From Neomegalonema sp. (lineage in GTDB: Bacteria > Pseudomonadota > Alphaproteobacteria > Rhodobacterales > Rhodobacteraceae), in the NCBI GenBank assembly GCA_022760435.1, contig JALEFY010000004.1:1-64000 (forward strand): DNA of 64,000 nucleotides. The letters are read 5' to 3'. Positions 1-15,878 of this stretch are shown here, one piece after another. Within the stretch, counting starts at the first letter, position 1. Every line of letters starts with the position of its first letter. The position numbers and the translations under genes were made by a program. Under the pieces are notes generated by a model, which was given only the letters and a program-made list of their open reading frames with translations, was not told the DNA's origin and did not search any database.

Positions 1-1041
1 CCCCCTTCGCGGGGGCGTGGATTGAAACAGCAGCTGGAACGGTGACGCAAACAGGGATGACCCCGTCGCCCCCTTCGCGGGGGCGTGGATTGAAACCACG
101 CAACAGCGGCCTACTGGTCATGGCATATTTGGTCGCCCCCTTCGCGGGGGCGTGGATTGAAACCCCGATGCCATCCTGGTCCAGCTGGAGGATGGCGAGG
201 TCGCCCCCTTCGCGGGGGCGTGGATTGAAACAGCGGCCAGCTGGGCCGTGGCCGCAGCCGACGCCGCGTCGCCCCCTTCGCGGGGGCGTGGATTGAAACA
301 GCGGCCTGGTGCGTCACATCTTGCTGGTGCTTTATGTCGCCCCCTTCGCGGGGGCGTGGATTGAAACGGCTGCTCGATTGGGCGGATCACAAGAGCTGCG
401 CACGTCGCCCCCTTCGCGGGGGCGTGGATTGAAACGGTGCGCACGACTAAATCTTTGCACGTCATTGCCGAGTCGCCCCCTTCGCGGGGGCGTGGATTGA
501 AACGGCGCTGTCGAGATAGGCGTCGACAAGGCGGGCGGTCGCCCCCTTCGCGGGGGCGTGGATTGAAACGCCCGCCGCGTCCAGCAGCACCCCATACTGG
601 CCCGGTCGCCCCCTTCGCGGGGGCGTGGATTGAAACCTCTACACGCCCGCGACCAGCACCGCCGAGCCGTCGTCGCCCCCTTCGCGGGGGCGTGGATTGA
701 AACTTCATCTCGCATGTCGTGCATACGCTGGGGCCATGGGTCGCCCCCTTCGCGGGGGCGTGGATTGAAACAGCGCATTCGCGTCGGGTGCTGAGCCGCG
801 TCTGTGGGTCGCCCCCTTCGCGGGGGCGTGGATTGAAACCGCCGCCGAGCGCAACTGATTGCCGACATTATGGTGTCGCCCCCTTCGCGGGGGCGTGGAT
901 TGAAACCTTTGCGCAGGATTGCGCCTGCACCATCCAGTTCGAGTCGCCCCCTTCGCGGGGGCGTGGATTGAAACTGCTCGTCATCTGTGTCGGGCATCAC
1001 ATCACTCCGGTCGCCCCCTTCGCGGGGGCGTGGATTGAAAC
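1..1041 (+). CRISPR. Type I-C-like CRISPR array, leader-distal end
   Basis: There are 16 copies of a 32-bp repeat that begins GTCGCCCCCTTCG and ends GTGGATTGAAAC, starting at 1 (first copy lacks its first four bases), 65, 132, 200, 268, 336, 404, 472, 538, 605, 672, 740, 808, 875, 943 and 1010. The 15 spacers between them are 34-36 bp and all different. The repeat holds a CGCCCCC/GGGGGCG hairpin and the ATTGAAAC 3' end typical of type I-C. With ATTGAAAC as the 3' end, transcription runs on the + strand and the leader lies off the left edge. No cas3, cas5c, cas8c, cas7 or cas4 gene is in the window. All visible repeats are essentially identical, including the last one. The array lies outside the tRNA-bounded island. 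Confidence 0.97.
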
Positions 1042-1069
1042 CTAATCTGATCCCTGAATACACGTCACT

Positions 1070-1708: not shown

Positions 1709-2911
1709 TTGCCACAACAGAAGCTGACCAAGAAGAAAGTCGAAAGCCTGGTCGCTGCCGAGACCGACCTTCTGGTCTGGGACGAGGCGCTGCCGGGGTT
1801 TGGCGTCCGGGTCAAACCAAGCGGCGTTCGCAGCTACATTGTCCAGTATCGATCGCAGCCGAGCGGCACCTCCCGGCGCATGACCCTGGGCAAGCACGGC
1901 CCGCTGCTCAGTTTCGAGCAAGCCAGAAAACAGGCCCGCGCCATACTGGCCGATGCGCAGCGCGGCGAAGATCCGGCCGATGAGCGCCACAAGGCGCGCC
2001 GCGCCCCAACCATGGCCCAGTTGGCGGAAGACTATCTCGAGCGTCATGCCCGACCCAACAAGCGTCCGAAGAGCGTGCGCGATGATGAGGCAATGCTGCG
2101 CAACCACATCTTGCCAGCACTCGCGTGCTCGAAGGTCGAACATGTCAGCCGTCGCGATATTGAAAAGCTGCACCTGAAGCTCAAGGAAAAGCCCTATCTC
2201 GCCAACCGCGTCCTATCGCTGTTGTCAAAGATGTTCAATCTTGCCAAATCCTGGCACTGGCAGAGCGACAACCCGGCGACCGGCATCCCCAAATACCCTG
2301 AAGCGAAACGCCAGCGCTGGCTGAGCAATGACGAGCTGTCACGGATCGTCGAGATCCTGGAGCAGCACCCGAACCGCCGCGCCGCGGATGCGGTCTTGCT
2401 GCAATTGCTCACCGGTGCGCGCATCGGAGAAGTCCTGTCAGCACGGGTTCAGGATATTGACCTCACCCTTGGCGTGTGGACGAAAGCCTCGCATCAGACC
2501 AAGCAAAAGCGCACCGAACATTTGCCGCTAAGCGCCCAAGCGGTCGCCTTGCTCGCCGATATCATGACCCGGCTCGATGCTGGCGAGGCTTATCTCTTCC
2601 CGGGCGATCGGCCAGGGCGTCCGCTGACCTCGATCAAGCTGTTCTGGTGCTCGGTCCTTCGGCAGGCGGGCATCACCGATTATCGCATTCACGACAACCG
2701 CCACACCTACGCCTCGCATCTGGTTTCGAGCGGTCTGAGCCTTGAGATCGTCGGCCGACTGCTCGGGCATACGCAAGCGGCCACCACCCAGCGCTACGCG
2801 CATCTTGCGGATGATCCACTCAGAGCCGCAACAGAGCGCTTCGCGACAAAGATGGGAGAATTGAAGGGCAAGAATCCGACCGCGACATCGAAAGGGAACA
2901 CGGGCGCATAA
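1709..2911 (+). CDS. P4-type tyrosine recombinase/integrase
   Basis: This enzyme would catalyse insertion and excision of the island at the tRNA-Arg 3' end. The 400-residue protein has the N-terminal DUF4102 arm-binding domain (about 1-95), a SAM-like core-binding domain (about 100-185) and a catalytic domain (about 205-380). The full active-site set is visible: R238 in GARIG, a Lys near 265, H328-x-x-R331, H354 in LLGH and Y363 in QRYAH. The start is a TTG at 1709; the N-terminus (PQQKLTKKKVESL) is typical of the family and no in-frame ATG gives a better one. It sits directly inside the left att repeat and converges with the Cas6e-like gene. It appears intact, so the island may still be able to excise. 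Confidence 0.93.
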   Translation: MPQQKLTKKKVESLVAAETDLLVWDEALPGFGVRVKPSGVRSYIVQYRSQPSGTSRRMTLGKHGPLLSFEQARKQARAILADAQRGEDPADERHKARRAPTMAQLAEDYLERHARPNKRPKSVRDDEAMLRNHILPALACSKVEHVSRRDIEKLHLKLKEKPYLANRVLSLLSKMFNLAKSWHWQSDNPATGIPKYPEAKRQRWLSNDELSRIVEILEQHPNRRAADAVLLQLLTGARIGEVLSARVQDIDLTLGVWTKASHQTKQKRTEHLPLSAQAVALLADIMTRLDAGEAYLFPGDRPGRPLTSIKLFWCSVLRQAGITDYRIHDNRHTYASHLVSSGLSLEIVGRLLGHTQAATTQRYAHLADDPLRAATERFATKMGELKGKNPTATSKGNTGA

Positions 2912-2994: not shown

Positions 2995-3750
2995 CTACGA
3001 GGATGCCGCGCGGGCTGGCATGACCTCCCTTGCCACCGGACGCGGTAGGACGAGGCCGTATCCATAGCCGCGATGGCGACCGAGGCCGTGGCGCAGCAGG
3101 TCGAAGAAGGCGGCGCTATCCTCGATCCGCACCTCTCCATAGAGCCGCGCCTCCGGACCAAAACTCACCGCAGCAGATCTCGCTGAGCCCGTCTTCATTG
3201 GGCTCATCCGCCTCGACCCCGAGCGCAGCACTGGCATGCGGCGATAGCGGCGCAATTGGCAATACTCGAGCCGCGCTGCCCCGCCGAGCCGCTCGTCAAG
3301 CCATTGCGCATAATGCGCCTCACGGACTGCGAGATCGGCCTCTGGATCCGGGCAGGCATCGGCCGTTCCGCCATTGGTCAGACGCCGCTCGGGGCGGGTG
3401 ACGAGCTCGATCCCGGTCATCTCGCCCACCTGCCAGTCATTGACCACCGAGCGCACCGCCATCGAACCGGGATCGAGCACTGCCAGTATCTCGGGCAACG
3501 CGTAGCGACCAAAGCGCGCCGAGAGCTCGGTCGGTGCGAGGTCGGTGCAGGCGGTGAGGGTCGCGCCGCCTCGGCTCACCTGCAGACGAAATGGGCGCAG
3601 TGCTCCGGGGCCAAAGCATTCGTCAAGCAGATGATGCAGGGCCCGTCCTTCATCAATCCCGCGCGCATGAACACCGCAATGGCGCCCCCGCGCCCAGCGA
3701 TGCAGCCCCGGCACTGACAGATTACTGCGCAGCAAGTTAAATCCCATCAT
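2995..3750 (-). CDS. cas6e: Cas6e-like CRISPR RNA endoribonuclease
   Basis: The predicted role is cutting the CRISPR transcript within each repeat to make crRNAs. The 251-residue protein resembles the Cas6e/Cse3/CasE family. It has an N-terminal half with VPGLHRWARGRH and the family-like stretch ALHHLLDECFG, and a C-terminal glycine-rich element RHRGYGYGL that would form the RNA-binding loop. The start ATG at 3750 is followed by a second ATG codon. Cas6e normally serves type I-E systems. Here it is the only candidate Cas6 in a type III-D locus, and it lies 650 bp from the leader side of the first type III array. It is divergent from that array. Assignment to Cas6 is fairly firm; the exact subfamily is less so. 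Confidence 0.75.
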   Translation of the reverse strand: MMGFNLLRSNLSVPGLHRWARGRHCGVHARGIDEGRALHHLLDECFGPGALRPFRLQVSRGGATLTACTDLAPTELSARFGRYALPEILAVLDPGSMAVRSVVNDWQVGEMTGIELVTRPERRLTNGGTADACPDPEADLAVREAHYAQWLDERLGGAARLEYCQLRRYRRMPVLRSGSRRMSPMKTGSARSAAVSFGPEARLYGEVRIEDSAAFFDLLRHGLGRHRGYGYGLVLPRPVAREVMPARAASS

Positions 3751-4174
3751 CGGCTCGCCCTCCTCTCCCCGTCCAGACCCATCTTGGCTTCCGTCTTGGC
3801 TTCCATCTTGGCCTTAATCTTCGGCGCCCCCGGATCGCGTTCTTGCACCTATCGTTCGGCGGCTTCATGCCCTAACGCGATCATGCCCTACGTCATCATG
3901 GACAAGTCGCGCTGCAATGAAAACCGGAAAGGTCATGGTCACGCCGCACCGAAATCTCTCGAAGCGTGGAAGAGAGGCGCGCACACGCAAGGTCGTGATG
4001 CCGACAAGAGCTTGGCCTTCTCGCACTTGCAGCTCTTCGGCGGAAATCTTTCGGCACTTGACAGGGCAAGGATCGGCCATCGAAGGGTCGACCATTGAGA
4101 GATCAAGCATCGAGAGATCGAGCATTGGGTCAAAAGAGATGGATTGGATTGAAAGTCGAACTTTGGGGACAATT
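3751..4174. other. Noncoding region with two short tandem repeats
   Basis: No convincing gene is seen in these 424 bp; the small open frames have no recognisable products. Two internal repeats stand out. Three 12-bp units of the form ATCTTGGCTTCC run at 3781-3816. About three and a half 15-bp units of the form CATYGAGAGATCRAG run at 4078-4130. The region lies between the divergent Cas6e-like gene and the first type III leader, so it should hold the cas6 promoter. Confidence 0.6.
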
Positions 4175-4397
4175 GCAGAACGGATTCCGGCTTTTCTCGG
4201 TAAAGTTTTGGCTTTGCAAAAATTATGGAGCGCGTGTGGATTTAGACACTTCCTTACGCGGCCGATTCGTGGTACTAATCATTTGTGGCAGGTTTCGACC
4301 CGCTACATATTGCTCTCTGATACCGGTGTCCTACCAAGTACAGATGGCTCACGCAGAGAGCGATAATGCCTCAGCAGTGCAACTTTTTGGTGTACCT
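4175..4397 (+). promoter_or_regulatory. Leader of type III array A
   Basis: This A+T-richer stretch lies immediately before the first repeat of array A. It aligns along its length with 7673-7885, ahead of array B, sharing blocks such as GGTAAAGTTTTGGCTTTGC, AATTATGGAGCG and the closing GTGTACCT just before the repeat. Conservation next to the first repeat marks it as the leader, with the promoter and spacer-integration signals. It fixes array transcription on the + strand. Confidence 0.85.
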
Positions 4398-4779
4398 CTG
4401 AGCTGTTGATCCCGATCCGTCGGGAATGGAAACAAATCTTCATGCGGCTTAGTATTTTAACACGCCTGAGCTGTTGATCCCGATCCGTCGGGAATGGAAA
4501 CTCAACGGTGGTTAGCCGTTTAGCGCACACCACCCTGAGCTGTTGATCCCGATCCGTCGGGAATGGAAACCAAGGTCGGATTTCGTGCGGCGGAGCTCCT
4601 CGTCTGAGCTGTTGATCCCGATCCGTCGGGAATGGAAACTCATCTCAATTCCTCTTTTTGGGAAACACTAAAGATCTGAGCTGTTGATCCCGATCCGTCG
4701 GGAATGGAAACCAATGACATGATATCTTCCAAAGCATTGATACCTGAGCTGTTGATCCCGATCCGTCGGGAACTGACCC
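4398..4779 (+). CRISPR. Type III CRISPR array A (6 repeats, 5 spacers)
   Basis: The 36-bp repeats start at 4398, 4466, 4535, 4604, 4676 and 4744. They begin CTGAGCTGTTGATCCC and end GTCGGGAATGGAAAC. Spacers are 32-36 bp. The last repeat degenerates over its final 8 bases, which marks the leader-distal end. A CCCGA/TCGGG stem leaves AATGGAAAC 3' of it, so cutting near the stem base would give a typical type III ATGGAAAC 5' tag. The repeat shares its last 27 bases with array B but differs at the 5' end. Confidence 0.97.
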
Positions 4780-4857
4780 TTGATGCGATAAGGCTTCGCA
4801 AGAAGACGTGCGGCTGAGCTGACACACCCGATCTGCTCGCACGTAATTTTAACAAAC

Positions 4858-4888
4858 AAAAAGCCGCCCTTTATCCGGGCGGCTTTTT
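4858..4888 (+). terminator. Intrinsic terminator after array A
   Basis: AAGCCGCCC and GGGCGGCTT form a perfect stem around a 7-base loop, followed by a T run on the + strand. The A run on the left side means it can also end the converging reverse transcriptase transcript on the minus strand. Confidence 0.85.
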
Positions 4889-4908
4889 CGTATTGGAAAC
4901 ATCGCGGG

Positions 4909-5796
4909 CTACGGCTTTTCTGGCCAGACCCCATGATCGAGGAAGGTATAGCCGAGAAAGGACAGGCCGAAGCCAAACCGGCTCAACCGCGTTTTCTCGG
5001 CATTGAGGATCATGCCCCGCTCGGCGAGCAGCGCCGCCATCTTCTCCAGCGAAGACCGCGCCGCGGCTTCATTGCGGGTCAGCAGCACGAAATCATCTGC
5101 ATAGCGCACCAGCTTCACCCGCCTCGAATGAATCGCCCGATCCACCGGCGTCAGCGCGAGATTGGCGAGCAAAGGCGAGATTGGCGACCCCTGCGCGATT
5201 CCCCGCATGCCCGAAGGACCGGTGGCAAAGCTAGTCAGCCACAACTCGATGAGCGCCTCCAGCCGCGGCGCATCGCCGATCGCCTCACGCATGGCCGCGC
5301 GCAACACGGGATGCGGCAGCGTACCGAAGAAGTCGGCAATGTCGCTCTCGGCGATCCAGTCAAAGCCGAACAAGCGCCAAGTCGTGATCTGCCCCGCGGC
5401 ATGGGCGCGCGAGAGCTTCGGGCGATAGGCAAAGCTCGCCGGCGACATCCAGGACGCGAGTCGTCGCTCCAGCAGGCGCGCTGCCGCACTCTGCACCACC
5501 CGATCGCGCACCGCAGGGATGCGAAGCTCGCGCTGCCCGCCGCTCTTCTTTGGGATCCGCACAGAGCGAAGGGGGCGCGGACGATAGCGCCCGGCATGCA
5601 GCTCCTCGACCAGCACAGGGATCTCACGCGACAGGTCGGCGCCGAAATCGGTGATGCTCTGACCATCGCCGCCCGGCGCCCCCTTATTGCGGCGCACAGT
5701 CTTCCAGGCGGCGCGCAGGACCTGAGGATGGCTGATCAGATCGAACAGATCTGCGCTCGGGGCGCTGTGGGTGGTCGGCGGGGTAGACAAGGTCAT
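4909..5796 (-). CDS. CRISPR-associated reverse transcriptase
   Basis: RNA-dependent DNA polymerase of the group II intron-like RT family, probably supplying cDNA for spacer capture from RNA. The chosen start (ATG at 5796, with GGGAG upstream) gives 295 residues. Visible RT motifs are LRIPAVRDRVVQ (motif 2), D152 in SDIADFFGTL (motif 3), AQGSPISPLLANL (motif 4) and Y232-A-D-D235 (catalytic). It ends soon after LSFLGYTF, without maturase or HNH domains, so it is a stand-alone RT and not part of an intron. It is divergent from the Cas2-like/cas1/cas2 operon with 115 bp between starts, and the pair is bracketed by the two arrays. The catalytic aspartates are intact. Confidence 0.92.
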   Translation of the reverse strand: MTLSTPPTTHSAPSADLFDLISHPQVLRAAWKTVRRNKGAPGGDGQSITDFGADLSREIPVLVEELHAGRYRPRPLRSVRIPKKSGGQRELRIPAVRDRVVQSAAARLLERRLASWMSPASFAYRPKLSRAHAAGQITTWRLFGFDWIAESDIADFFGTLPHPVLRAAMREAIGDAPRLEALIELWLTSFATGPSGMRGIAQGSPISPLLANLALTPVDRAIHSRRVKLVRYADDFVLLTRNEAAARSSLEKMAALLAERGMILNAEKTRLSRFGFGLSFLGYTFLDHGVWPEKP

Positions 5797-5911
5797 GCGG
5801 CACTCCCTTAGCATTGGCATTGCTCGCCAGCATGCGCAAATCCGCAGCCCTGGCCGGGGCGGAGATCTCTCGAGCCAACCAAGCACTGGGGGCGCATGCT
5901 AGCGCTGCCCT

Positions 5912-6196
5912 ATGACCGAGCATGATCTATTTCTCATTGCCTACGACATCCCGGAGCCGCGCCGCGGGCAGCACGCTCTCCGAGCTGTGCGCGGCTGTGC
6001 TTGTGGTGGGCAATACTCTGCTCATGAGGTCGCGGCCGGTAGAACTGCTGCCCGTGAAATGCGAGAGCGCCTGCTGGCTCAGCTGGACCTCGCTTTCGAT
6101 CGCTTGCTCATCCTACGTCTTGATCCGCGCAGCGAGCCCGTCACGCTGGGGCTCGGCACGCCGCCCGATCCACAATTCCTTTATATCGGCGAATAA
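5912..6196 (+). CDS. cas2: Cas2-like protein (first of two)
   Basis: This 94-residue protein has the Cas2 start LFLIAYDIPEP, with the conserved Asp in YDI, and the ferredoxin-like spacing through FDRLLILRL to a short tail. Cas2 dimers bridge two Cas1 dimers in the spacer-integration complex. It is the first gene of the adaptation operon, 12 bp ahead of cas1. It diverges strongly from the second Cas2 (7234-7644): it is shorter, lacks the acidic tail and contains a CACGG stretch. It may form a heterodimer with the second copy or have a special role with the RT; both ideas are inference. Confidence 0.8.
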   Translation: MTEHDLFLIAYDIPEPRRGQHALRAVRGCACGGQYSAHEVAAGRTAAREMRERLLAQLDLAFDRLLILRLDPRSEPVTLGLGTPPDPQFLYIGE

Positions 6197-6208
6197 GAAG
6201 GGCTCTCT

Positions 6209-7234
6209 ATGACCACGCTCTATGTCGATCGCCGCGGTGTTGATCTCGATCTCGATGGTGAGGCGATCGTGATCCGTGCAAGTGAGGATCGGGTCGGGAC
6301 GGCGCCGCTGCGTTTGCTCGAGCGGGTGGTAATCCGGGCCGCGGCGCGGGTGACGGTGCGCTTGCTGGCGCGGCTGGCTGATCGCGGGATTGGGGTCTTG
6401 CTGCTCTCGGGCCGCTCAAAGAAGCCAGGGACGCTCTTGCCCGCGCGAATGGCTGGCGACCCGGCGCTGCGCCTCGCACAATACGCGGCACTGCTCGATG
6501 AGCCATACCGTGAGCGGGTCGCTCTTTTGCTGGTTGCCGGCAAGATTTGGCGTCAGATTGAATGCCTGCGCACGCTTGCCGGACCGGGTGAGGATTTACG
6601 CGCGGCGAGCATTATGCGCCTCGAAGAGCGTCTTGCCGCTCTTGGTACCACTGCCCCGAACAGGGCAAGTCTGCGCGGGATAGAGGGCACTGCTGCCGCC
6701 ACCTATTTTCCCGCCTTTGCAAGCACGTTGCCGCCATCGCTGCGCTTTCATGGCCGCAACCGCAGGCCGCCGCGCGATCCCGTCAATGCCTGTCTTTCGC
6801 TCGGCTACACGCTGATCCATTTCGAAGCCGCCCGCCAGCTTGCCGAAATCGGCCTCGATCCGATGCTCGGAATGTATCACGAGCCCCGTGCTGGCCGCGA
6901 GGCATTGGCGAGCGATCTTATTGAGCCCAGCCGTGCTGCGATCGATGCCTTCGTCTGGCGTCTGTTTCGTGATCGGGTGCTGCGGGTCGAGGGGTTCACG
7001 CTCTCGGGCGAGGCCTGCATGATGAGCAAGAGCACCCGGAAGGCATTCTATCGCGCCTATGAGGAAGCCGCACCGGCATTTCGGCACGAGTTGCAGCGCG
7101 GGGCGAAGGCGTGGCGCCGGGCGCTGATTGATCGCGGCTCAGGCCTCCCTGACCTCCCTGACCTCCCTGACCGCCCGGCCCAGGACATGGCCATGCAGGC
7201 TTGCTTCGCAGCCGATCCCGATGACGGGCTCTGA
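6209..7234 (+). CDS. cas1: Cas1 spacer-integration endonuclease
   Basis: The integrase subunit that inserts new spacers at the leader end of the arrays. The 341-residue protein has an N-terminal beta domain (LYVDRRGVDLDLDG, then RGIGVLLLSGRS) and the helical catalytic domain. Metal ligands are visible as E159 in GIEG, H224 in MYHEP and E239 in SDLIEPSR. The C-terminus carries a Leu-Pro-Asp tripeptide repeated three times, encoded by a 9-bp tandem repeat at about 7144-7171. An AAGAAGGG sequence precedes the ATG. The TGA overlaps the ATG of the next cas2 by one base, so translation is coupled. Confidence 0.96.
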   Translation: MTTLYVDRRGVDLDLDGEAIVIRASEDRVGTAPLRLLERVVIRAAARVTVRLLARLADRGIGVLLLSGRSKKPGTLLPARMAGDPALRLAQYAALLDEPYRERVALLLVAGKIWRQIECLRTLAGPGEDLRAASIMRLEERLAALGTTAPNRASLRGIEGTAAATYFPAFASTLPPSLRFHGRNRRPPRDPVNACLSLGYTLIHFEAARQLAEIGLDPMLGMYHEPRAGREALASDLIEPSRAAIDAFVWRLFRDRVLRVEGFTLSGEACMMSKSTRKAFYRAYEEAAPAFRHELQRGAKAWRRALIDRGSGLPDLPDLPDRPAQDMAMQACFAADPDDGL

Positions 7235-7644
7235 TGCGCGCGCGCCGAGCCTATCTGATTGCCTATGACATCCGCTCACCCAAGCGGTTGCGCGCCGTGC
7301 ACCGCTTTGTTTCTCAGCGCGCTTACCGCCTGCAATACTCGCTCTATGTCATCGCCCTCACCCCGCGCGGGCTGGAACGGATGACTGAGGCCCTGCGCCG
7401 CCGCATTGATGAGGCGGTGGACGATGTCCGCATTTACCCGATCCCCGAGCCGCCGCGCGGCGCCTGGTTCGGCCCCTTGCCCGAGGCGGAAGGCATCATG
7501 CTTCTCGGAAATCCGGCCGCTGAACTTGCCCGCCGGCTCAAGGAAAAGGCCGAGGCACAATTACCGGAAATGATGCCTGACATGGACGATGATGGCGGCG
7601 ATCATGCTGGGGAGGATCCAGAAGATTTTGGTGCGAACGAGTAA
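7234..7644 (+). CDS. cas2: Cas2 (second copy, acidic tail)
   Basis: Canonical Cas2 with RAYLIAYDIRSPKR at the start, SLYVIALTP in the middle and VRIYPIPEP near the end of the core. The core is about 95 residues and is followed by an unusual extension of about 40 residues rich in Asp and Glu (DMDDDGGDHAGEDPED). It overlaps the cas1 stop codon by one base. Having two Cas2 homologues around one Cas1 is uncommon. The acidic tail may regulate DNA binding or contact another subunit, which is a guess. Confidence 0.93.
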   Translation: MRARRAYLIAYDIRSPKRLRAVHRFVSQRAYRLQYSLYVIALTPRGLERMTEALRRRIDEAVDDVRIYPIPEPPRGAWFGPLPEAEGIMLLGNPAAELARRLKEKAEAQLPEMMPDMDDDGGDHAGEDPEDFGANE

Positions 7645-7672
7645 GCACAAAGCAAAACAGAAGCAGAACGAA

Positions 7673-7885
7673 TTTCGGCTTTTTTCGGTAAAGTTTTGGC
7701 TTTGCTAAAATTATGGAGCGATGATGAATTTTGACATTTCCTTACACGCCAAAATCGTGGTTCAAGAAAAATGTAGTTGGATCAAACCCACTACATTTTG
7801 CTCTTTGATATTGACGACCGACGAAATATTGAGACTTAATGCAAAGAGTGGAGTTTACTCAGCAGCACAACTTTATAGTGTACCT
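7673..7885 (+). promoter_or_regulatory. Leader of type III array B
   Basis: Homologous to the array A leader (4175-4397) over its length, starting at GCAGAACG and closing with GTGTACCT next to the first repeat. It begins about 30 bp after the second cas2. The two leaders are similar enough that one Cas1-Cas2 complex should recognise both. Confidence 0.85.
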
Positions 7886-8270
7886 GTTGAGCTTTGATCC
7901 CGATCCGTCGGGAATGGAAACCCCGCCCATCTTCGGGGAGGGATGGCGGTTGGGGTTGAGCTTTGATCCCGATCCGTCGGGAATGGAAACCATATATGGG
8001 GGGGGCTGCCATCAAGGTCCCTGCCGTTGAGCTTTGATCCCGATCCGTCGGGAATGGAAACTCAACAAGTCGGGGAGACACTCGGTAGCTATAGGGTTGA
8101 GCTTTGATCCCGATCCGTCGGGAATGGAAACTATCTCGCTGGTGAGACTCAATGAGAGCATACGTTGAGCTTTGATCCCGATCCGTCGGGAATGGAAACC
8201 GCATTGCGGGGTTGCCATTGCTGTTGCGTCTGGGGTTGAGCTTTGACCCCGATCCGCCGGGAATAAACCC
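7886..8270 (+). CRISPR. Type III CRISPR array B (6 repeats, 5 spacers)
   Basis: The 36-bp repeats start at 7886, 7955, 8026, 8096, 8164 and 8235. They begin GTTGAGCTTTGATCCC and end GTCGGGAATGGAAAC. Spacers are 32-35 bp and differ from those of array A. The last repeat has several changes (GACCCC, CCGCC and AATAAACCC), marking the leader-distal end. It is similar in size and orientation to array A. Confidence 0.97.
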
Positions 8271-8470: not shown

Positions 8471-9697
8471 ATGAGCAAGGCCGATCCGACGATTATCCAA
8501 GAAGGTGGCGGCCAGGTGGGCACCGCTGATGGCGGCGGCTCATCGGTTCAGCGGGGGCCGGAGCAAAAGCAGGGGCTGGCTCTGGATCCGCGCCAGCCCG
8601 AGCGCTACGCGCGCCGTGTGCTCGTCGCATCGCTGGGTCTGGCGCCACAGGTGCTCACGGAGACGCTGCACGCGCTGGGCACCGACGAAACGGCCCCCTT
8701 TCACGCCACCGAAATCCATATCGTCACCACCGAGCAAGGAGCGCAGCGCGCGCGCCTTACCCTCATCGATCCCGAAACCGGCGCCATCGCCCGGCTGGCA
8801 TGCGAGCATGCGCTGCCCGCGCCGGGAGCGGTCCAGATCCATGTCATCGAGAGTGATGGGGTCGCACTTGATGACATCGATACAGAAAGCCACAATGCCG
8901 CCGCCGCCGATCTGATCGTCGATCTGCTGCAACGCCTCACCGACGACCCGACCGCGGCGCTGCATGTCTCGATCGCCGGGGGCCGCAAGACCATGGGCTT
9001 TCTGATGGGCTATGCCCTTTCGCTCTATGGGCGCGCACAGGATCGACTGAGCCATGTCCTTGTGAGCAAGCCATTCGAGGGGCATCCGCAATTCTTCTTC
9101 CCGCCAAAGCCGGCGCAAGTGCTGCTGGACCGGGACAACACGCCGGTCAGCACCGCCTCGGCGATCATCACCCTTGCCGAGATCCCGTTCGTGCGCCTGC
9201 GCGAGCAATTGCCCAAACCAATGGGCGCGGGAAAAGCCAGCTTCTCGCGCACGGTGGCGCTGGCGCAGGATCGGCTCGACCCGCCGGAACTTGTGCTCGA
9301 TACCGGTCACAAGCTGCTGATCGCGCAAGGGCAGGAAGTGCGGCTCGCTGATAGCGAGTTCACCTTCGCCCTCTGGGTGGTCGAGCGTATGCAGCGCCTC
9401 TCAGAGGATGATGGCGGGGTAGCGACCTTCGAGCGCGATCCGCGCGAATGGCTCGACATCTACACACGGGTCGTCGGGCCAGAAAACACGCGCGAGGATC
9501 TGCTCGACACCTATCGCAAGGGGCTGGAAGAGGATTTCTACGCCCGCCAGAAGTCGCGGTTCAACCGACAGATCTCCGACCAGCTCTGGCCGCTCGATGA
9601 GCGGTACAAGTTACGCCAGAAGGGCAAGCGGATCTGGTTCGATCTGCCGCTCGATGCACTGCATGTGGTCTGTACCAGGGAGGATGGGAATGACTGA
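8471..9697 (+). CDS. CARF-domain protein, NE0113/Csm6-like family
   Basis: A predicted sensor or remover of the cyclic oligoadenylate made by Cas10. The 408-residue protein has a variable N-terminus of about 45 residues. It then has a Rossmann-like CARF domain with RRVLVASLGLAPQVLTE (48-64), EIHIVTTE (81-88) and the ligand-loop motif G170-G-R-K-T-M-G. The C-terminal part (about 300-400) looks like a winged-helix region (RFNRQISDQL, then GKRIWFDLP). I find no R-x(4-6)-H motif, so it probably is not a HEPN RNase. Members of this family have been annotated as Csm6 or as ring nuclease. It overlaps csx16 by 8 bases and heads the three-gene signalling cassette. Confidence 0.85.
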   Translation: MSKADPTIIQEGGGQVGTADGGGSSVQRGPEQKQGLALDPRQPERYARRVLVASLGLAPQVLTETLHALGTDETAPFHATEIHIVTTEQGAQRARLTLIDPETGAIARLACEHALPAPGAVQIHVIESDGVALDDIDTESHNAAAADLIVDLLQRLTDDPTAALHVSIAGGRKTMGFLMGYALSLYGRAQDRLSHVLVSKPFEGHPQFFFPPKPAQVLLDRDNTPVSTASAIITLAEIPFVRLREQLPKPMGAGKASFSRTVALAQDRLDPPELVLDTGHKLLIAQGQEVRLADSEFTFALWVVERMQRLSEDDGGVATFERDPREWLDIYTRVVGPENTREDLLDTYRKGLEEDFYARQKSRFNRQISDQLWPLDERYKLRQKGKRIWFDLPLDALHVVCTREDGND

Positions 9698-9980
9698 CTA
9701 TTTCGTAACCCGCCATAGCGGCGCGGTTGATTGGGCGCAGAGGCGAAACATCAAGGCGACCCTCGTCCGGGACTTTGATGTGACGGATGTCAAGCCGGGC
9801 GATCGGGTGCTCGGGACCCTGCCGGTCAACCTCGCCGCAGAGGTCTGCGCGCGCGGCGGCACATACCTGCATCTGAGCATGGACGTGCCCTTCGAGCTGC
9901 GCGGCAAGGATCTGTCGGCGGACGATATGGATGCCTGCAAGGCCGAACTGATCGAGTATTTTATTGAGAGGAGAGGGTGA
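9690..9980 (+). CDS. csx16: Csx16-family CRISPR accessory protein
   Basis: A 96-residue protein starting MTDYFVTRHSGAVDWAQ, followed by GDRVLGTLPVNLAAEVC and YLHLSMDVPFELRGKDLS, all characteristic of the Csx16 (VVA1548) family. Csx16 proteins occur with type III systems, and I understand them to be linked with cyclic-oligoadenylate turnover; I hold that function with moderate certainty. The ATG at 9690 lies inside the end of the CARF gene, and its stop TGA overlaps the next ATG, so the three genes are translationally coupled. Confidence 0.88.
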   Translation: MTDYFVTRHSGAVDWAQRRNIKATLVRDFDVTDVKPGDRVLGTLPVNLAAEVCARGGTYLHLSMDVPFELRGKDLSADDMDACKAELIEYFIERRG

Positions 9981-10528
9981 TGGAGACTATGGGACGATTG
10001 TGGAGTATTTTTTCCGAAATGATGCACACCATTGAACCCGTCAATACGTTGATTGGTTTGGGAACATTTGTTTTCACCGTTTTGATCTGGTGGATGGTGC
10101 GCCGTCAAAATCAGCTGCGTTATGCGCGTTGGCTTCAAGAGGCGTCATCTGAGTCCGGGGAAAGGCCTGCTGCACTCATCATCGACTATTGGGACAAGGG
10201 GGAAATTGACGTTCAAGTCAAGTCCTTTTTGAGAAAACGTTATCCAGATAGCTTCCCTGACGAAAGCATCTTTCAAATTGGCAGCAACATCCAATTGACC
10301 CCCCTGGAGATGCCGACAATTGCAAGGGAGTTACGTGAGGCAGGTTTTTTGATCTCAAAGTATGGAGCAAACAAGCTTCACGTTTTTATTGCTGCTCCGA
10401 TGCCAGTGGCGATGCTCGTTGGCGCGGAGCTCTCAAACTGGGGGCGAGTTCACATATATCATATGAACAGGAGCGCTCAACAGAATGAGTATGAAGATTG
10501 GGGGCCGCTCAAGCATTTCAATCTCTAA
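9980..10528 (+). CDS. Membrane-anchored SAVED-like protein
   Basis: A protein of about 182 residues with one N-terminal membrane segment (about 21-41, TLIGLGTFVFTVLIWWMV), a basic stop (RRQNQLR), and a soluble domain. The C-terminal part reads KLHVFIAAPMPVAMLVGAEL, then NWGRVHIYHMNR and YEDWGPL. That pattern matches the end of SAVED domains (hLFiaaP, ..aGq.l, G.vhlYe, Y.p.l.L). SAVED domains bind cyclic nucleotides in CBASS and in some type III CRISPR effectors. No attached nuclease, protease or other effector is visible, so the membrane segment may itself be the output. ATG at 9980 overlaps the csx16 stop, with GAGAGGAGAGGG upstream; GTG at 9977 is possible. The SAVED call rests on motif pattern only. 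Confidence 0.65.
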   Translation: METMGRLWSIFSEMMHTIEPVNTLIGLGTFVFTVLIWWMVRRQNQLRYARWLQEASSESGERPAALIIDYWDKGEIDVQVKSFLRKRYPDSFPDESIFQIGSNIQLTPLEMPTIARELREAGFLISKYGANKLHVFIAAPMPVAMLVGAELSNWGRVHIYHMNRSAQQNEYEDWGPLKHFNL

Positions 10529-10570: not shown

Positions 10571-10734
10571 GAGCATACAATGTACCTCAAGTCCCAGAGC
10601 GTCGTCGAACGCTTCGCTATGCGCAAAGCCCGGTTTCCTCGTTTTGACATCGTTGGTTTGCATCGAACGGTAAAGGCCCGCCATTCCCTAGATCCGGAAA
10701 GCAAAATCTTTGGCCAACTCGTTTCATTTTTCCA

Positions 10735-10913
10735 TTTTCATTCTCAACATACCAATTGAAATTCTTGCCCTTGGGATCTGGCTCGTTCCAGGTTCCGTTT
10801 CCGTTTGCGACACGAGGGTAGTGGATACCCAGACCATCATCGTGCCCTCGGGCTGCGATAAGGAAGCTGGCGAGATGTGGAAGGTCCTCGGCGCGATCAG
10901 CGCCGCTGCCAAT
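10735..10913 (-). pseudogene. Fragment of the large Cas7 gene 3' end
   Basis: Nearly identical over much of its length to 11241-11419, inside the C-terminal coding part of the TIGR03986-type gene, but detached from any start. It is the left-unit relic of the 506-bp tandem duplication. Confidence 0.75.
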
Positions 10914-11125: not shown

Positions 11126-13585
11126 TCACCTTCGTCGCCGTCGCGAATTGTCTGGTGGGTAGAATGGCAGTGCGACTTCATTACCCTCAGTTGGATTATT
11201 CTCCGCAGCGACAAGGTCCGGAAGCGATTTCTTTTGACGCTTCTCATTCTCACCAAACCACTTGAAGTTCTCGCCCTTGGGATCTGGCTCGTTCCAGGTT
11301 CCGTTTCCGTTTGCGACACGAGGGTAGTGGATACCCAGACCATCATCGTGCCCTCGGGCTGCGACAAGGAAGCTGGCGAGGTGTGGAAGGTCCTCGGCGC
11401 GATCAGCGCCGCCGCAAAGAGCTCTCGATGCCTCTCTAAATGTTTCGACGAGTGTAGCTGCTGTAGTTGCGCCTTCTTCCGGCATGGCTGCCTCCGGCTT
11501 GCGATCCCAGCAGATTGTGGCGCCGCCTGCATCCTCGCTGCCTCCAAATGCATCAGCATACTCCGACCGCTTGGCGCCGCCGTCACGTAGGTCCACTCCC
11601 GTGAGCGAGACTTTTACTGAGCCAAACCCAAGCGGCTTGCCGCCCCCGAGCCTAAGATGGGCTGGCCGATTGCCGCCTGCGAAGGCATTCATGTCGAGCA
11701 ACCAGAGCAGAGCACCGAGCTCGGCCGGGTTGAGATTGGTCACCTCCAGCGTGGCTCGGAACTTCGTTTTTGGCTTAACCCACTCGCCGATGCTGCGGTT
11801 CTGAGAGTCTTGCTCCCCCCCCCAACGCAGAAACTCACGCGGGCGCCCGCTCTCCCCATCCGGAGCATCGCAATTCTTTCTTTCATCTGCGTTGCGCACC
11901 TGCTCGGCCGACCAATAATCGGTCTGCGGAATGTTGTGATGCGGATAGACCTTCGGGCCGCGCAGATGCTTGCCCTTCTTGTACTCCGAGCCCGCCCCAG
12001 CGTCTTGCGCGCGCACCCATCCGTGCCGCTTCGTCCCCAGATAGAACCGCCCCTGATTGGGCTTGGGCTGGCCGAGGATCGCGAGCGGGATCGGGGGGGC
12101 AAATGTCTCTATCGCCCCTTCAGTATCGCAGGACACATCGACGATCCGCAACTGCCCCTTATGGGTATTGCCGCCCCGCTCTTTTGCCTCAGCCCCACGC
12201 TGCGCCACCCAACCAAAGACGCGATCCGCAGGCGTTAGCTCCACAAGCTTCCGAGCAGTTCGGTAAGCGTCGGGAAGGAGATCCGCAGGGCTTACATCGT
12301 CGAGCTTTCGGGTCAGAAGAACCGGCACTAAGTCAGTCACGCCATGTGGTGCGTCTGGCTCGTTTGATTCCACGACTGCGTAAAGAATGTCGTTCGGTTT
12401 CAGCGTCGCGTCATCCCGTGTATGCACATGCCGGGACCATGCCGGTTTTCCCGGGGCCTTACCCAGAAAAGCATCAGCGGTTTTCTTTTTAGACAGCCGG
12501 ACCGCGATGTCCTGTCTATGAATCTCCTGATAGTCTAGGATCAATGCTTGGTAGCGTTTAATGAGGCGCCTTGCGGCTGCACCAAGAATTTCAACGGTCG
12601 GAACGTCGGGCTTTGCGCCTGTTGCTTTGACAAAAAACAAGCGTTCATCATGTTTTTTGCTGAAGTTTTGACCAGTTACGCAGCCATAACCATGCGCAAA
12701 GCAGTCATCTGTGAGGGCTTCATGAAAATTTTGCCCATCAGGCACTTTTCCAGTTTCTCTAGGTTGGTTCCAACTGTCGCATTCGTTTGGATCAAGAAAG
12801 CCACTTTTTAAATCGATTACTGACCAATATTCAAAGGTGTTCGTTTTGTGACGCCTGTCTTTTTTGTCCCACGTATGGTGCCTAACCTTTTGAAGGCGCG
12901 CTGTATAAGGCTCCCCATGACGTAACCGATTATTGTCCGTGACCCCCTTCCGATAAACCGGTCCGCGATCGCTCGTTCCCCCATTTGTGTCGTATTGCGG
13001 CACCCATGCAGCCCATAATGGGCCCGTCGAAGAAGCTGGCAGTTTTGAATCTTTGCTGATCGTAGAATTATCAGTTCCAAGGAAAAACTCGAATTTAAGG
13101 CGACTGCCATTGTCAGGTCCTTCAGAGAGGTCAAGCTCACATTCAAGAATGCGAATCGGCAGCTTATTGAGACCATCACTGGCAGTGTCCCGCCGTCCTA
13201 AAGGTTCATAATGACCAGCGAAGACGCCCATGCGGGAGAGCGTGATTGCCTCATAGGCGCTGCGCAGAGCGCCTTTGAGCGAGGAGGGGCGGAGCATCGG
13301 ACAGTCGTTACGTCCCGGGCGCGGATCTCTCATCACCTTCGGATGGGTGGCGTGGTTTTTATCGCCGAACGTCGTTTGCGAGGTGTCGGGCAAGAGAAGT
13401 GGCGTGGCGGCCTCGATCTCCACCTCGATCCGGCCGGACCAGGTGTCTTTGTGATATCGGTCATGCCCTAATGGCGCGCCTTCGCCTAGACCGTTTTCTT
13501 CCTCTGAGTTGGACTGATCGCTCCACCCACGAAAAGGGATAAAGTTATACGGATTGTGAAATCTCTTTTTCCTAGGGTCGTTCAT
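11126..13585 (-). CDS. Large type III-D Cas7 with insertion (TIGR03986-like)
   Basis: RAMP-fold subunit of the type III-D effector backbone, 819 residues. The N-terminal RAMP elements are IEVEIEAATPLLLPD and the helix motif LRPSSLKGALRSAYEAI. The C-terminal elements are ELGALLWLLDM and the glycine-rich loop LRLGGGKPLGFGSVKVS. The long middle carries the family's large insertion. ATG at 13585 is preceded by GGGGAGGGGG; a GTG lies one codon upstream. In III-Dv complexes the Cas7-insertion subunit caps the backbone and takes part in target RNA cleavage; whether that holds here is inferred. It is the last gene of the cas10 operon. Its 3' end was tandemly duplicated. Confidence 0.87.
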   Translation of the reverse strand: MNDPRKKRFHNPYNFIPFRGWSDQSNSEEENGLGEGAPLGHDRYHKDTWSGRIEVEIEAATPLLLPDTSQTTFGDKNHATHPKVMRDPRPGRNDCPMLRPSSLKGALRSAYEAITLSRMGVFAGHYEPLGRRDTASDGLNKLPIRILECELDLSEGPDNGSRLKFEFFLGTDNSTISKDSKLPASSTGPLWAAWVPQYDTNGGTSDRGPVYRKGVTDNNRLRHGEPYTARLQKVRHHTWDKKDRRHKTNTFEYWSVIDLKSGFLDPNECDSWNQPRETGKVPDGQNFHEALTDDCFAHGYGCVTGQNFSKKHDERLFFVKATGAKPDVPTVEILGAAARRLIKRYQALILDYQEIHRQDIAVRLSKKKTADAFLGKAPGKPAWSRHVHTRDDATLKPNDILYAVVESNEPDAPHGVTDLVPVLLTRKLDDVSPADLLPDAYRTARKLVELTPADRVFGWVAQRGAEAKERGGNTHKGQLRIVDVSCDTEGAIETFAPPIPLAILGQPKPNQGRFYLGTKRHGWVRAQDAGAGSEYKKGKHLRGPKVYPHHNIPQTDYWSAEQVRNADERKNCDAPDGESGRPREFLRWGGEQDSQNRSIGEWVKPKTKFRATLEVTNLNPAELGALLWLLDMNAFAGGNRPAHLRLGGGKPLGFGSVKVSLTGVDLRDGGAKRSEYADAFGGSEDAGGATICWDRKPEAAMPEEGATTAATLVETFREASRALCGGADRAEDLPHLASFLVAARGHDDGLGIHYPRVANGNGTWNEPDPKGENFKWFGENEKRQKKSLPDLVAAENNPTEGNEVALPFYPPDNSRRRRR

Positions 13586-13623
13586 CACCCCCTCCCCAAT
13601 AGTGTTTTAAGTCCGCTCCAAGC

Positions 13624-14244
13624 TTATTGGATAAAGCTTTTTGGCTTTCCACCGCCTGCTGCCCCGACAAACCGCTGCGCGATGACCGCGTAGTTGCCGC
13701 TGTCTTGCCGCTGCGCGTATTCGACGGCACGGATCCGGCAGAGTTGTCGCTTTTCGCCCTTGGAATCTTTCGCATCGGTTTGTTCGACAACATGCTCCGG
13801 CACCCACAGCTTTCCAATGCGAGCGGCCGACAAGGCGAGCCAACCGACTTGGGTTTGGTCTACATTTACCTGCCCCCAAAGCACGTAGCATTGCTTGATC
13901 ACGCGGACATTCTCCTCAGTCTCGGCCTTGCCGGCCCAAGTCTGTTCTTTTTCTGCGATCACGGCAGCCTGTCCGCTGTCTCCGTTTCGTTGCCAGCGCA
14001 GCTCCCAATCGCACGTGAAGATCACCGCCTCATAGATTTGGTCGATCGCCAGCGCATTGCCCTGCTCATCGAACAGCTCCGCACGCTTGACCACGGCAAA
14101 CCGTGCTTCACGCAGGCCATGGACGAAGGCGACGGGCTCAGTTCCATCCGGCAATTGCTTGAGAACATCGGGCAAACTGAGGTCGCTGCTGATAGTGGAG
14201 CGGTAGAGCTTGGCCGGAGTTGGATCCTTCTCTAGCGCGCTCAT
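13624..14244 (-). CDS. csx19: Csx19, type III-D subunit (TIGR03984-like)
   Basis: A 206-residue protein with the Csx19-type features CDWELRWQR and VIKQCYVLWGQ and a C-terminal AVEYAQRQDSGNYAVIAQRF. Csx19 is a hallmark of type III-D and is a structural subunit in III-Dv complexes. The start is the ATG at 14244, with AGGGAG upstream. It overlaps the TGA of the double-Cas7 gene by four bases (ATGA); an upstream in-frame extension is ignored. A short gap separates it from the large Cas7 downstream. Confidence 0.87.
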   Translation of the reverse strand: MSALEKDPTPAKLYRSTISSDLSLPDVLKQLPDGTEPVAFVHGLREARFAVVKRAELFDEQGNALAIDQIYEAVIFTCDWELRWQRNGDSGQAAVIAEKEQTWAGKAETEENVRVIKQCYVLWGQVNVDQTQVGWLALSAARIGKLWVPEHVVEQTDAKDSKGEKRQLCRIRAVEYAQRQDSGNYAVIAQRFVGAAGGGKPKSFIQ

Positions 14245-15878
14245 GCCGTGTCTCCCTGTTTGGTGTTGGCTGAAGCAGCCTCGATGGCCTCGCTCCACGC
14301 TTTGCCCAATGCTTCGAATTTGGTCAGAGCATCCCAATGCGCGGCGCCAGTTGCACTGGGATCCGGCACCTGCTCCGGCAAAGTGACGGCGTCGATGACG
14401 CGCTGTCCCTCGAAGGCGATCTTGCTGACCTCAATCGAGCCAAGCCCGCGATTGCCGCCGAAACCGATTGCGAGGCGACCCCTAGCCAGATCGCGCAGCA
14501 CAAGCAGCAAGAGCGCCAGGCTCGTGAGTTGCTGATCTTTGGCGATGCGATGCAGGGCGAGAGTGATCTCGAAGACCTGATCCTCCTCAGGGATCGCGGG
14601 CTCGAGACGGGAATAGAGAAAGCCCTCCGCCGCGCCGCCGGTCCAACGGTCGATCGCGACCATGGCCACTGGCAGGGGGGCGCCCGAGGCAACTTCGTCA
14701 GTTGCCTCGGGCGACCGATCTTGGCCCTCAGCGTCAGCGGTGAAAAGAGGTTGCCATTTGTTTCGATCGACAGAGAGCGGCATCAGGCAGTCATCGACCG
14801 TAATCGCCGACAGGCCGCGGCGGATCTTCTTGGCTTCCTCTGTTTTCTCGGCGCGCGCCGGGGCGCCGAAGAGCCACTCGACCTGATCAAGTTCGAGTTG
14901 CTTCAAAAAACGCTCACGGCCCGTATTTTCGGTCGGCGCGTCGGTACCCGTGACCGTGCGCCAGATCCGCTCGGCATGGTTGCGCAGTACGCCCTTGACC
15001 GAGGAGCCGGGGATCACTTGCCGGAGCTTGCCATCTCGGCGCCGCGTCATCAGCGGCAATTGATCGACCAGCGAACCCTCTGCGCCATCCTTGACCATCA
15101 CCGGCAAGCAGGGGCGCCAATGCACTTTGATCGTGAGCGCGTCGGCCGCAGCTTCTGCATCCGGTTTGTACTCCTCTCCGCCCGCGATTTGTCGCCAACC
15201 GGGCCCGTCGCCACGATCGGCGGGTGCAGGCGCTGAGACGAGAGAGGCCAGCACATCCGCTTTCGCCCACTCGAGGCGCTCGAGCCGCGGATCGAGCAGC
15301 GCCAACCGGCCCAGACCTCGGGTCTTGGCGGCACCGATACGGATCTGGCCGGAGGCGAGAGCGTTCATCAGCGCTTTTAGATGTGTTTCGATCAGGTGAA
15401 CCTTTTTGCAGGCTGCCGTGGTCAAATTGACCCTGAGTTCGAAAGTGAAAAACGAGCCAGCGGGCAGCACCTCGCGGTCATATTTGATGCCGTCCGCAGC
15501 CGTACCAGTCACCCGGTCAATGCCGACACCGTCGCGGATCTCCGGCCGGATCTGGCTGTGCGCGCAGATCGGCGCATCGTCGATCGCAAGATGGCTGGCG
15601 CTGGGCCGTTGGTTCTCCCGGGTCGGGGTGTTGCCCCAGAGATAGTCAAAGAGGTCGCTTCCGGCAGCGGCCCCATCGGTCTCGCCGCCGAGTGTACGCC
15701 TCGACCAGTCGCGCAGCGCACCGGCGAGCGAGGTGCCGGGAATGTAAAGCTCGCCTGCTCCATTGCGCGCCAGGGTCATGTCGATGCCGAGATCATCGGC
15801 CATCCCGCCGATATGCATCGGGCCGAGGCTCTCGAGCGTGCCTTTCAGGCGATAGATTGCGCAGAGCTTACGCGCCAT
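14241..15878 (-). CDS. Double Cas7 (two RAMP domains fused)
   Basis: A 545-residue backbone subunit with two tandem Csm3-like domains. Domain 1 has GPMHIGGMADDLGIDM, YIPGTSLAGALRDW and IRIGAAKTRGLGRL (about 15-205). Domain 2 has VIPGSSVKGVLRNHAERI and FGGNRGLGSIEVS (about 255-490). Each domain carries the Gly-rich RNA-binding loop and acidic residues that could cut target RNA (for example DDLGIDM). ATG at 15878 has a perfect AGGAGG upstream and overlaps the end of the preceding gene by 11 bases. The arrangement equals the Cas7-2x protein of III-Dv systems. Confidence 0.88.
   Translation of the reverse strand: MARKLCAIYRLKGTLESLGPMHIGGMADDLGIDMTLARNGAGELYIPGTSLAGALRDWSRRTLGGETDGAAAGSDLFDYLWGNTPTRENQRPSASHLAIDDAPICAHSQIRPEIRDGVGIDRVTGTAADGIKYDREVLPAGSFFTFELRVNLTTAACKKVHLIETHLKALMNALASGQIRIGAAKTRGLGRLALLDPRLERLEWAKADVLASLVSAPAPADRGDGPGWRQIAGGEEYKPDAEAAADALTIKVHWRPCLPVMVKDGAEGSLVDQLPLMTRRRDGKLRQVIPGSSVKGVLRNHAERIWRTVTGTDAPTENTGRERFLKQLELDQVEWLFGAPARAEKTEEAKKIRRGLSAITVDDCLMPLSVDRNKWQPLFTADAEGQDRSPEATDEVASGAPLPVAMVAIDRWTGGAAEGFLYSRLEPAIPEEDQVFEITLALHRIAKDQQLTSLALLLLVLRDLARGRLAIGFGGNRGLGSIEVSKIAFEGQRVIDAVTLPEQVPDPSATGAAHWDALTKFEALGKAWSEAIEAASANTKQGDTA

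What the first reader, a model, noticed from the sequence alone, without database searches (positions are those of the whole stretch)
4909..7644. RT plus Cas1 with two different Cas2 proteins
A stand-alone RT with YADD is divergent from an operon Cas2-like, Cas1, Cas2. The two Cas2 proteins differ clearly; the second has a strongly acidic 40-residue tail. A Cas2 heterodimer, or one Cas2 dedicated to RT-made cDNA, is possible.
Basis: partly seen in the sequence, partly recalled or inferred. Interest (0 to 1): 0.65.

Follow-up and report, generated by a model that had tools for sequence, protein, structure and literature searches.

The report
Paired-Cas2 CRISPR adaptation module with RT
A bacterial CRISPR memory-writing machine here uses two different, anciently separated Cas2 scaffold proteins around one Cas1, plus a later-acquired reverse transcriptase; relatives in at least two phyla keep the same pair (most also with a second, apparently dead Cas1), which suggests that the normally symmetric spacer integrase has become asymmetric.

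Summary
RT (4909-c.5796, minus), Cas2A (5912-6196), Cas1 (6209-7234) and Cas2B (7234-7644) are real and sit in a type III-D locus, between two CRISPR arrays with homologous leaders. Both Cas2s pass Pfam's cut-off and their models match solved Cas2 structures. The new result is that the pair is conserved: all 14 loci with the region intact (window included; Pseudomonadota and Acidobacteriota) have Cas2A, Cas1A, Cas2B in that order. Cas2A (98/96), Cas2B (99/95) and Cas1A (100/100) are each one clade, apart from the ordinary Cas2/Cas1 proteins compared. Eight of the 14 also encode Cas1B, a shorter Cas1 homologue without catalytic motifs. The RT is a later addition: only three loci have it, their RTs (98/97) and Cas1s (95/90) form matching clades, and all three lack Cas1B. 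So 'one Cas2 for RT-made cDNA' is unlikely; a Cas2A-Cas2B heterodimer is the best reading but is untested. The acidic tail is peculiar to the window protein. The order cas2-cas1-cas2 was listed once without comment (Gallibacterium, PMC3554606); I found no description of the pair as a system or of Cas1B. New variant of a known kind.

The parts
4909..5796 (-). Stand-alone group-II-type reverse transcriptase (RT0-7, YADD), ends about 10 residues after RT7 (no thumb/maturase domain)
   Evidence: ORF formally opens at 5886 (GTG), start inferred
5912..6196 (+). Cas2A: first, divergent Cas2; clade signature (G/D)GQ(K/Y)SxxE
6209..7234 (+). Cas1A: Cas1 with intact catalytic residues, member of the paired-Cas2 clade
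7234..7644 (+). Cas2B: second Cas2; overlaps the cas1 stop codon; private acidic tail in the last c.25 residues
4175..4397 (+). Leader of array 1 (74% identical to leader of array 2 in a 259-nt match)
4398..4779 (+). CRISPR array 1, 6 repeats (last one degenerate), repeat CTGAGCTGTTGATCCCGATCCGTCGGGAATGGAAAC
4858..4888 (-). Strong terminator-like hairpin between array 1 and the 3' end of the RT gene
   Evidence: consensus match only
7663..7885 (+). Leader of array 2
7886..8270 (+). CRISPR array 2, 6 repeats (last one degenerate), repeat GTTGAGCTTTGATCCCGATCCGTCGGGAATGGAAAC (5' end differs from array 1)
2995..3750 (-). Cas6-like protein
8471..9697 (+). NE0113/Csx1-type CARF protein
9690..9980 (+). 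Csx16
9977..10528 (+). SAVED/CARF-like protein with transmembrane segment
11126..20258 (-). Type III-D effector operon: Cas10 (18330-20258), Cas5/Cas7 fusion (15868-18333), Cas7 fusion (14241-15956), Csx19 (13624-14337), TIGR03986 RAMP (11126-13588)

Best explanation
This is the spacer-acquisition module of a type III-D CRISPR system in which the usual Cas2 homodimer is most likely replaced by a Cas2A-Cas2B heterodimer, giving an integrase core with two unlike sides. Shown: both proteins are Cas2, belong to two separate clades, and are always encoded together around one Cas1A with intact catalytic residues; many relatives add Cas1B, a Cas1 homologue without the active site. Inferred: Cas2A and Cas2B pair and each holds one arm of Cas1, so that the two ends of a prespacer are handled differently. 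In four-gene relatives Cas1B would take a non-catalytic Cas1 position. Inferred purpose: fixing spacer orientation, which type III needs because its complexes recognise RNA. In the window's lineage an RT was added once and Cas1B is absent; the RT, close to the RT domains of RT-Cas1 fusions but separate, would let this integrase also take spacers from RNA or cDNA.
For: Order Cas2A-Cas1A-Cas2B in 14 of 14 loci with the region intact. Separate clades: Cas2A 98/96, Cas2B 99/95, Cas1A 100/100. Both model as Cas2. Cas1B in 8 of 14 loci: N-terminal domain matches Cas1 by profile (hhalign probability 96%; Pfam), catalytic motifs absent, distances track those of Cas1A (r 0.90). RT of the same clade in the same locus in three genomes, overlapping cas10 by 4 nt in one (L073). 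RT and Cas1 trees agree for these three. Near-fixed differences between A and B, e.g. residue 64 Arg/Ser in A, Asp in B.
Against: No complex was modelled or measured; two homodimers would fit the gene content too. The A-B distance correlation is weak (r 0.22, p 0.04), lower than either with Cas1A. Both Cas2s keep the features of ordinary homodimeric Cas2. RT function, RNA-derived spacers and fixed spacer orientation are all untested. Absence of Cas1B with RT is one evolutionary event (3 of 6 against 0 of 8, p 0.055 without correcting for kinship).
Confidence: 0.5

Rival explanations
1. Two alternative Cas2 homodimers share one Cas1, making two integrases for two arrays or two substrates.
For: The window and L012 each have two arrays flanking the module, whose repeats differ at the leader-proximal end.
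Against: The two leaders are homologous and the 3' parts of the repeats identical; several relatives show one array next to the module; Cas2 is mostly a scaffold and does not choose the array in known complexes (established knowledge).
Confidence: 0.2
2. Only one Cas2 works in integration; the other is an accessory nuclease or regulator (Cas2 belongs to the VapD-like nuclease family).
For: Both keep the Asp12 that serves catalysis in Cas2 nucleases; PMC6452270 notes that the role of Cas2 nuclease activity is open.
Against: Both are always kept with Cas1A in the same order, and Cas2A and Cas2B distances both follow Cas1A (r 0.75 and 0.52).
Confidence: 0.2
3. One Cas2 is dedicated to RT-made cDNA.
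For: RT and paired Cas2s share the locus in the window, G603 and G067.
Against: Eleven of 14 loci have the pair with no RT of this clade found; no RT match at all in G358, G488, G808, G837, G878, G798, G973, G1076 and G1077.
Confidence: 0.05
4. A chance or recent gene duplication without functional meaning, or an RT that is a degenerate group II intron remnant.
For: The RT gene lies on the other strand, and its position differs between loci.
Against: A and B are old separate clades; RTs form one clade that parallels Cas1; YADD intact; no Rfam intron match.
Confidence: 0.05

Closest known systems
RT-Cas1 / stand-alone RT adaptation modules of type III systems (RT-CRISPR clades, PMC5541045, PMC6013744)
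   Same: Group-II-type RT with YADD, Cas1 and Cas2, type III effector; nearest RT kin outside the module are Azospirillum-type RT-Cas1 fusions
   Different: RT not fused; two Cas2 clades; Cas1A is not close to the Cas1 domain fused to the nearest RTs, so the RT seems to have changed partner
Canonical Cas1-Cas2 integrases of solved Cas4-Cas1-Cas2 complexes (PDB 8d3l type I-C, 7mi4 Cas4/Cas1 fusion)
   Same: Cas1A active-site residues and Cas2 fold; best sequence matches among solved structures
   Different: One cas2 and a Cas2 homodimer there, with Cas4; here two cas2 genes, often two cas1 genes, no Cas4 seen in the module
Gallibacterium anatis type III-A locus csm1..csx1-cas2-cas1-cas2 (PMC3554606)
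   Same: Same gene order listed, with csx16 in the locus
   Different: Mentioned only in a gene list, no RT named; membership in the A and B clades not tested here
Cas6-RT-Cas1 with Cas2 (PDB 7kft/7kfu, PMC8102632)
   Same: RT works with Cas1 and Cas2
   Different: Covalent fusion and two copies of one Cas2

Membership tests
Cas2 | Pfam PF09827 above cut-off | tested here: met
   24.9 and 53.5 bits against 23.8; Cas2A only just, its relatives 44-52 bits
Cas2 | Ferredoxin-like fold matching solved Cas2 | tested here: met
   Foldseek: Cas2A to 4es1 E 2e-5, Cas2B to 1zpw E 3e-6; core confidence good, C-terminal part low
Cas2 | Assembly with Cas1 | not testable with these tools
   No multimer prediction or assay available
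Cas1 integrase (Cas1A) | Catalytic Glu, His, Asp/Glu | tested here: met
   E159, H224, D236, E239 identical in 15 of 15
Active Cas1 (for Cas1B of relatives) | Catalytic motifs | tested here: not met
   RPPxDxxN absent in 8 of 8; only the N-terminal domain aligns to Cas1
RT-associated type III CRISPR adaptation module | Group-II-type RT with YADD next to cas1/cas2 | tested here: met
RT-associated type III CRISPR adaptation module | Type III effector genes in the locus | tested here: met
   Cas10, Cas5/Cas7 III-D, Csx19
RT-associated type III CRISPR adaptation module | RT groups with other CRISPR RTs, not with intron RTs | tested here: met
   Set of 8 rows with RT-Cas1 fusions 96/98 in a small tree; the two rows labelled II in it are the Cas6-RT-Cas1 fusion of L078. 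Toro clade number not determined
RT-associated type III CRISPR adaptation module | Spacers acquired from RNA | not testable with these tools
   Needs a spacer-acquisition assay
Group II intron | Intron RNA and maturase domain | tested here: not met
   No Rfam match in 1-22000; ORF ends just after RT7
Canonical single-Cas2 adaptation module | One cas2 gene | tested here: not met
   Two Cas2 clades in all 14 intact loci

The most novel reading that the evidence does not exclude
A class of inherently asymmetric CRISPR integrases: an obligate Cas2A-Cas2B heterodimer, in many members with a dead Cas1B partner for Cas1A, which fixes which prespacer end meets the leader; in one lineage Cas1B is gone and a stand-alone RT adds RNA-derived, strand-oriented spacers.
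Probability: 0.35. Interest if true: 0.82.

Novelty: new variant of a known kind. Interest (0 to 1): 0.64.

Why it matters
Solved Cas1-Cas2 integrases are built on a symmetric Cas2 pair, and where spacer orientation is controlled it is thought to come from added factors such as Cas4 or exonuclease trimming (established knowledge). A naturally split Cas2 pair, plus a dead Cas1 in most relatives, offers a genetically simple system in which the two ends of the integrase can be changed separately. It makes the question of how type III systems, with or without RT, obtain usable spacer orientation directly testable.

Tried and rejected
Genome-contig scan with Cas1 found only two relatives; whole-genome searches were needed. 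Viral contigs: no true relative of Cas2A. Rfam: nothing in 1-22000. Literature phrase searches for two, second, paralogous or heterodimeric Cas2 and second or inactive Cas1 (mostly Cas13 noise) found no description; the 2025 classification was searched by term only and showed none in the passages returned. 'Acidic tail as a functional feature' rejected: not conserved. 'Pair made by recent duplication' rejected by the tree. The weaker Cas2A-profile hits (below about 67 bits and not partner of a strong hit), taken at first as possible members, are mostly ordinary single Cas2s. Spacer origins were not searched: few spacers of 30-34 nt.

Full report
OBSERVATION. Pfam: RT PF00078 E 2e-25; Cas2A PF09827 E 2e-5, just above the cut-off; Cas1 PF01867 E 2e-68; Cas2B PF09827 E 3e-14. 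RT and cas2A diverge; cas1 and cas2B overlap by one base. RT0-7 with YADD is intact and the protein ends about 10 residues after RT7, so it is an RT domain without thumb or maturase part.

SURROUNDINGS. Two arrays of one system flank the module, both with the leader on the left; the leaders match at 74% over 259 nt and the repeats share 26 nt at the 3' side but differ at the 5' end. The 26-nt core occurs nowhere else in this genome. Further right come an NE0113-type CARF protein, Csx16 and a SAVED/TM protein, then a type III-D effector operon: Cas10, Cas5/Cas7 fusions, Csx19. A third array, 1-1042, has a different repeat, and the genome holds a second, ordinary Cas1 and Cas2 on another contig. 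I did not establish the species.

ARE BOTH CAS2? Models from small alignments give the Cas2 fold for both and match solved Cas2 structures (Cas2A: 4es1 E 2e-5; Cas2B: 1zpw E 3e-6). Profiles of both families match 17 solved Cas2 sequences each.

RELATIVES. Cas1 and Cas2A searches over whole genomes and plasmids gave 14 loci, window included, in which the region is complete. All have Cas2A, Cas1A, Cas2B in that order: window, L003 (Terriglobia), L004 (Pseudomonadales; 4.3 kb between Cas2A and Cas1A), L009 (Sphaerotilus plasmid, annotated cas2-cas1-cas2), L012, L013, L014, L015, L046, L047, L048, L050, L051, L052. In the 398-genome phylum sample about 2% carry it. L049 is cut by its contig end and L053 is an exception (see noticed in passing).

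TREES. Of 52 Cas2 sequences, 16 Cas2A form one clade (98/96) and 15 Cas2B another (99/95), apart from 21 ordinary Cas2s (few columns, inner forks unsure). Cas1A is one clade (100/100). The pair is thus old and inherited as a unit. Differences between A and B are near-fixed at residues 23 (L/H), 35 (K/Y), 64 (R or S/D), 68 (L/Y) and 71 (D/P).

CAS1B. Eight loci (L003, L013, L015, L046, L047, L048, L050, L051) have a further gene between Cas1A and Cas2B. Its N-terminal domain matches Cas1 (Pfam above cut-off in two of three tested; hhalign probability 96%). It is 257-293 aa long and lacks RPPxDxxN in 8 of 8; the region with the catalytic residues does not align to Cas1A. Cas1B distances track Cas1A (r 0.90). 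It is probably a non-catalytic subunit; that is inference.

THE RT. RTs of one clade (98/97) occur in the same locus in the window, in G603 (the RT gene overlaps cas10 by 4 nt; effector genes in the window's order; 16-17 kb from the module) and in G067 (beside a mini-array with one of the module's repeats; 12 kb from the module). The same three genomes form a Cas1A subclade (95/90). The nearest other RTs are those of Azospirillum-type RT-Cas1 fusions, but their Cas1 domains lie far from Cas1A: the RT seems to have moved to a new integrase. None of the three has Cas1B, and no Cas1B locus has this RT; as the three are one lineage this is suggestive only (p 0.055 uncorrected).

MECHANISM. Known integrases place two Cas1 dimers on a Cas2 dimer, with one active Cas1 in each dimer (established knowledge; PMC9048733 for the hexamer). 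Conserved pairing of two Cas2 clades is most simply read as a heterodimer with unlike arms. A type III system must make crRNAs that match transcripts, so an integrase that knows which end is which would be useful, more so if RNA or RNA/cDNA is the substrate. Shown: genes, folds, clades, order, missing Cas1B motifs. Inferred: dimer, asymmetry, orientation, RNA source.

KNOWN OR NEW. Stand-alone and fused RTs in type III systems are well described (PMC5541045, PMC6013744). The order cas2-cas1-cas2 was listed for Gallibacterium without comment (PMC3554606). Searches of the open library found no account of paired Cas2 clades or of Cas1B; subscription papers and preprints are mostly not held. Hence new variant of a known kind.

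Noticed in passing
window 4398-4779 and 7886-8270; L012 6835-7384 and 9204-9404: In two genomes the arrays on either side of the module differ in the 5' (leader-proximal) end of the repeat while the 3' part is identical.
   Followed up: partly
L053 (G766:C20) 339-1623: Cas2A is followed by an RT whose first c.34 residues are the N-terminus of a Cas2B; no Cas1A-type Cas1 found in that genome. A deletion, a fusion or an assembly fault.
   Followed up: partly
L078 (G871:C42) 3597-6470: A 957-aa Cas6-RT-Cas1 fusion in a genome that also has the paired-Cas2 module on another contig.
   Followed up: partly
window 1-1042; G000:C30: A 16-repeat array with another repeat (I-C-like from memory) and an ordinary Cas1/Cas2 pair elsewhere in the genome, so two CRISPR systems coexist.
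   Followed up: partly
window 10722-10912 and 11228-11418: 191-nt direct repeat, 92% identical: a partial copy of the 3' end of the TIGR03986 RAMP gene next to it.
   Followed up: no
window 8471-10528: CARF (NE0113), Csx16 and SAVED-TM proteins in one run: a cyclic-nucleotide signalling set of the type III system.
   Followed up: no
L009 8412-9386: Sphaerotilus plasmid: an endonuclease/exonuclease/phosphatase-family gene next to the module, with BREX genes upstream.
   Followed up: no
window 1709-2911: Phage-type tyrosine integrase beside the CRISPR region, so the locus may lie on a mobile island.
   Followed up: no
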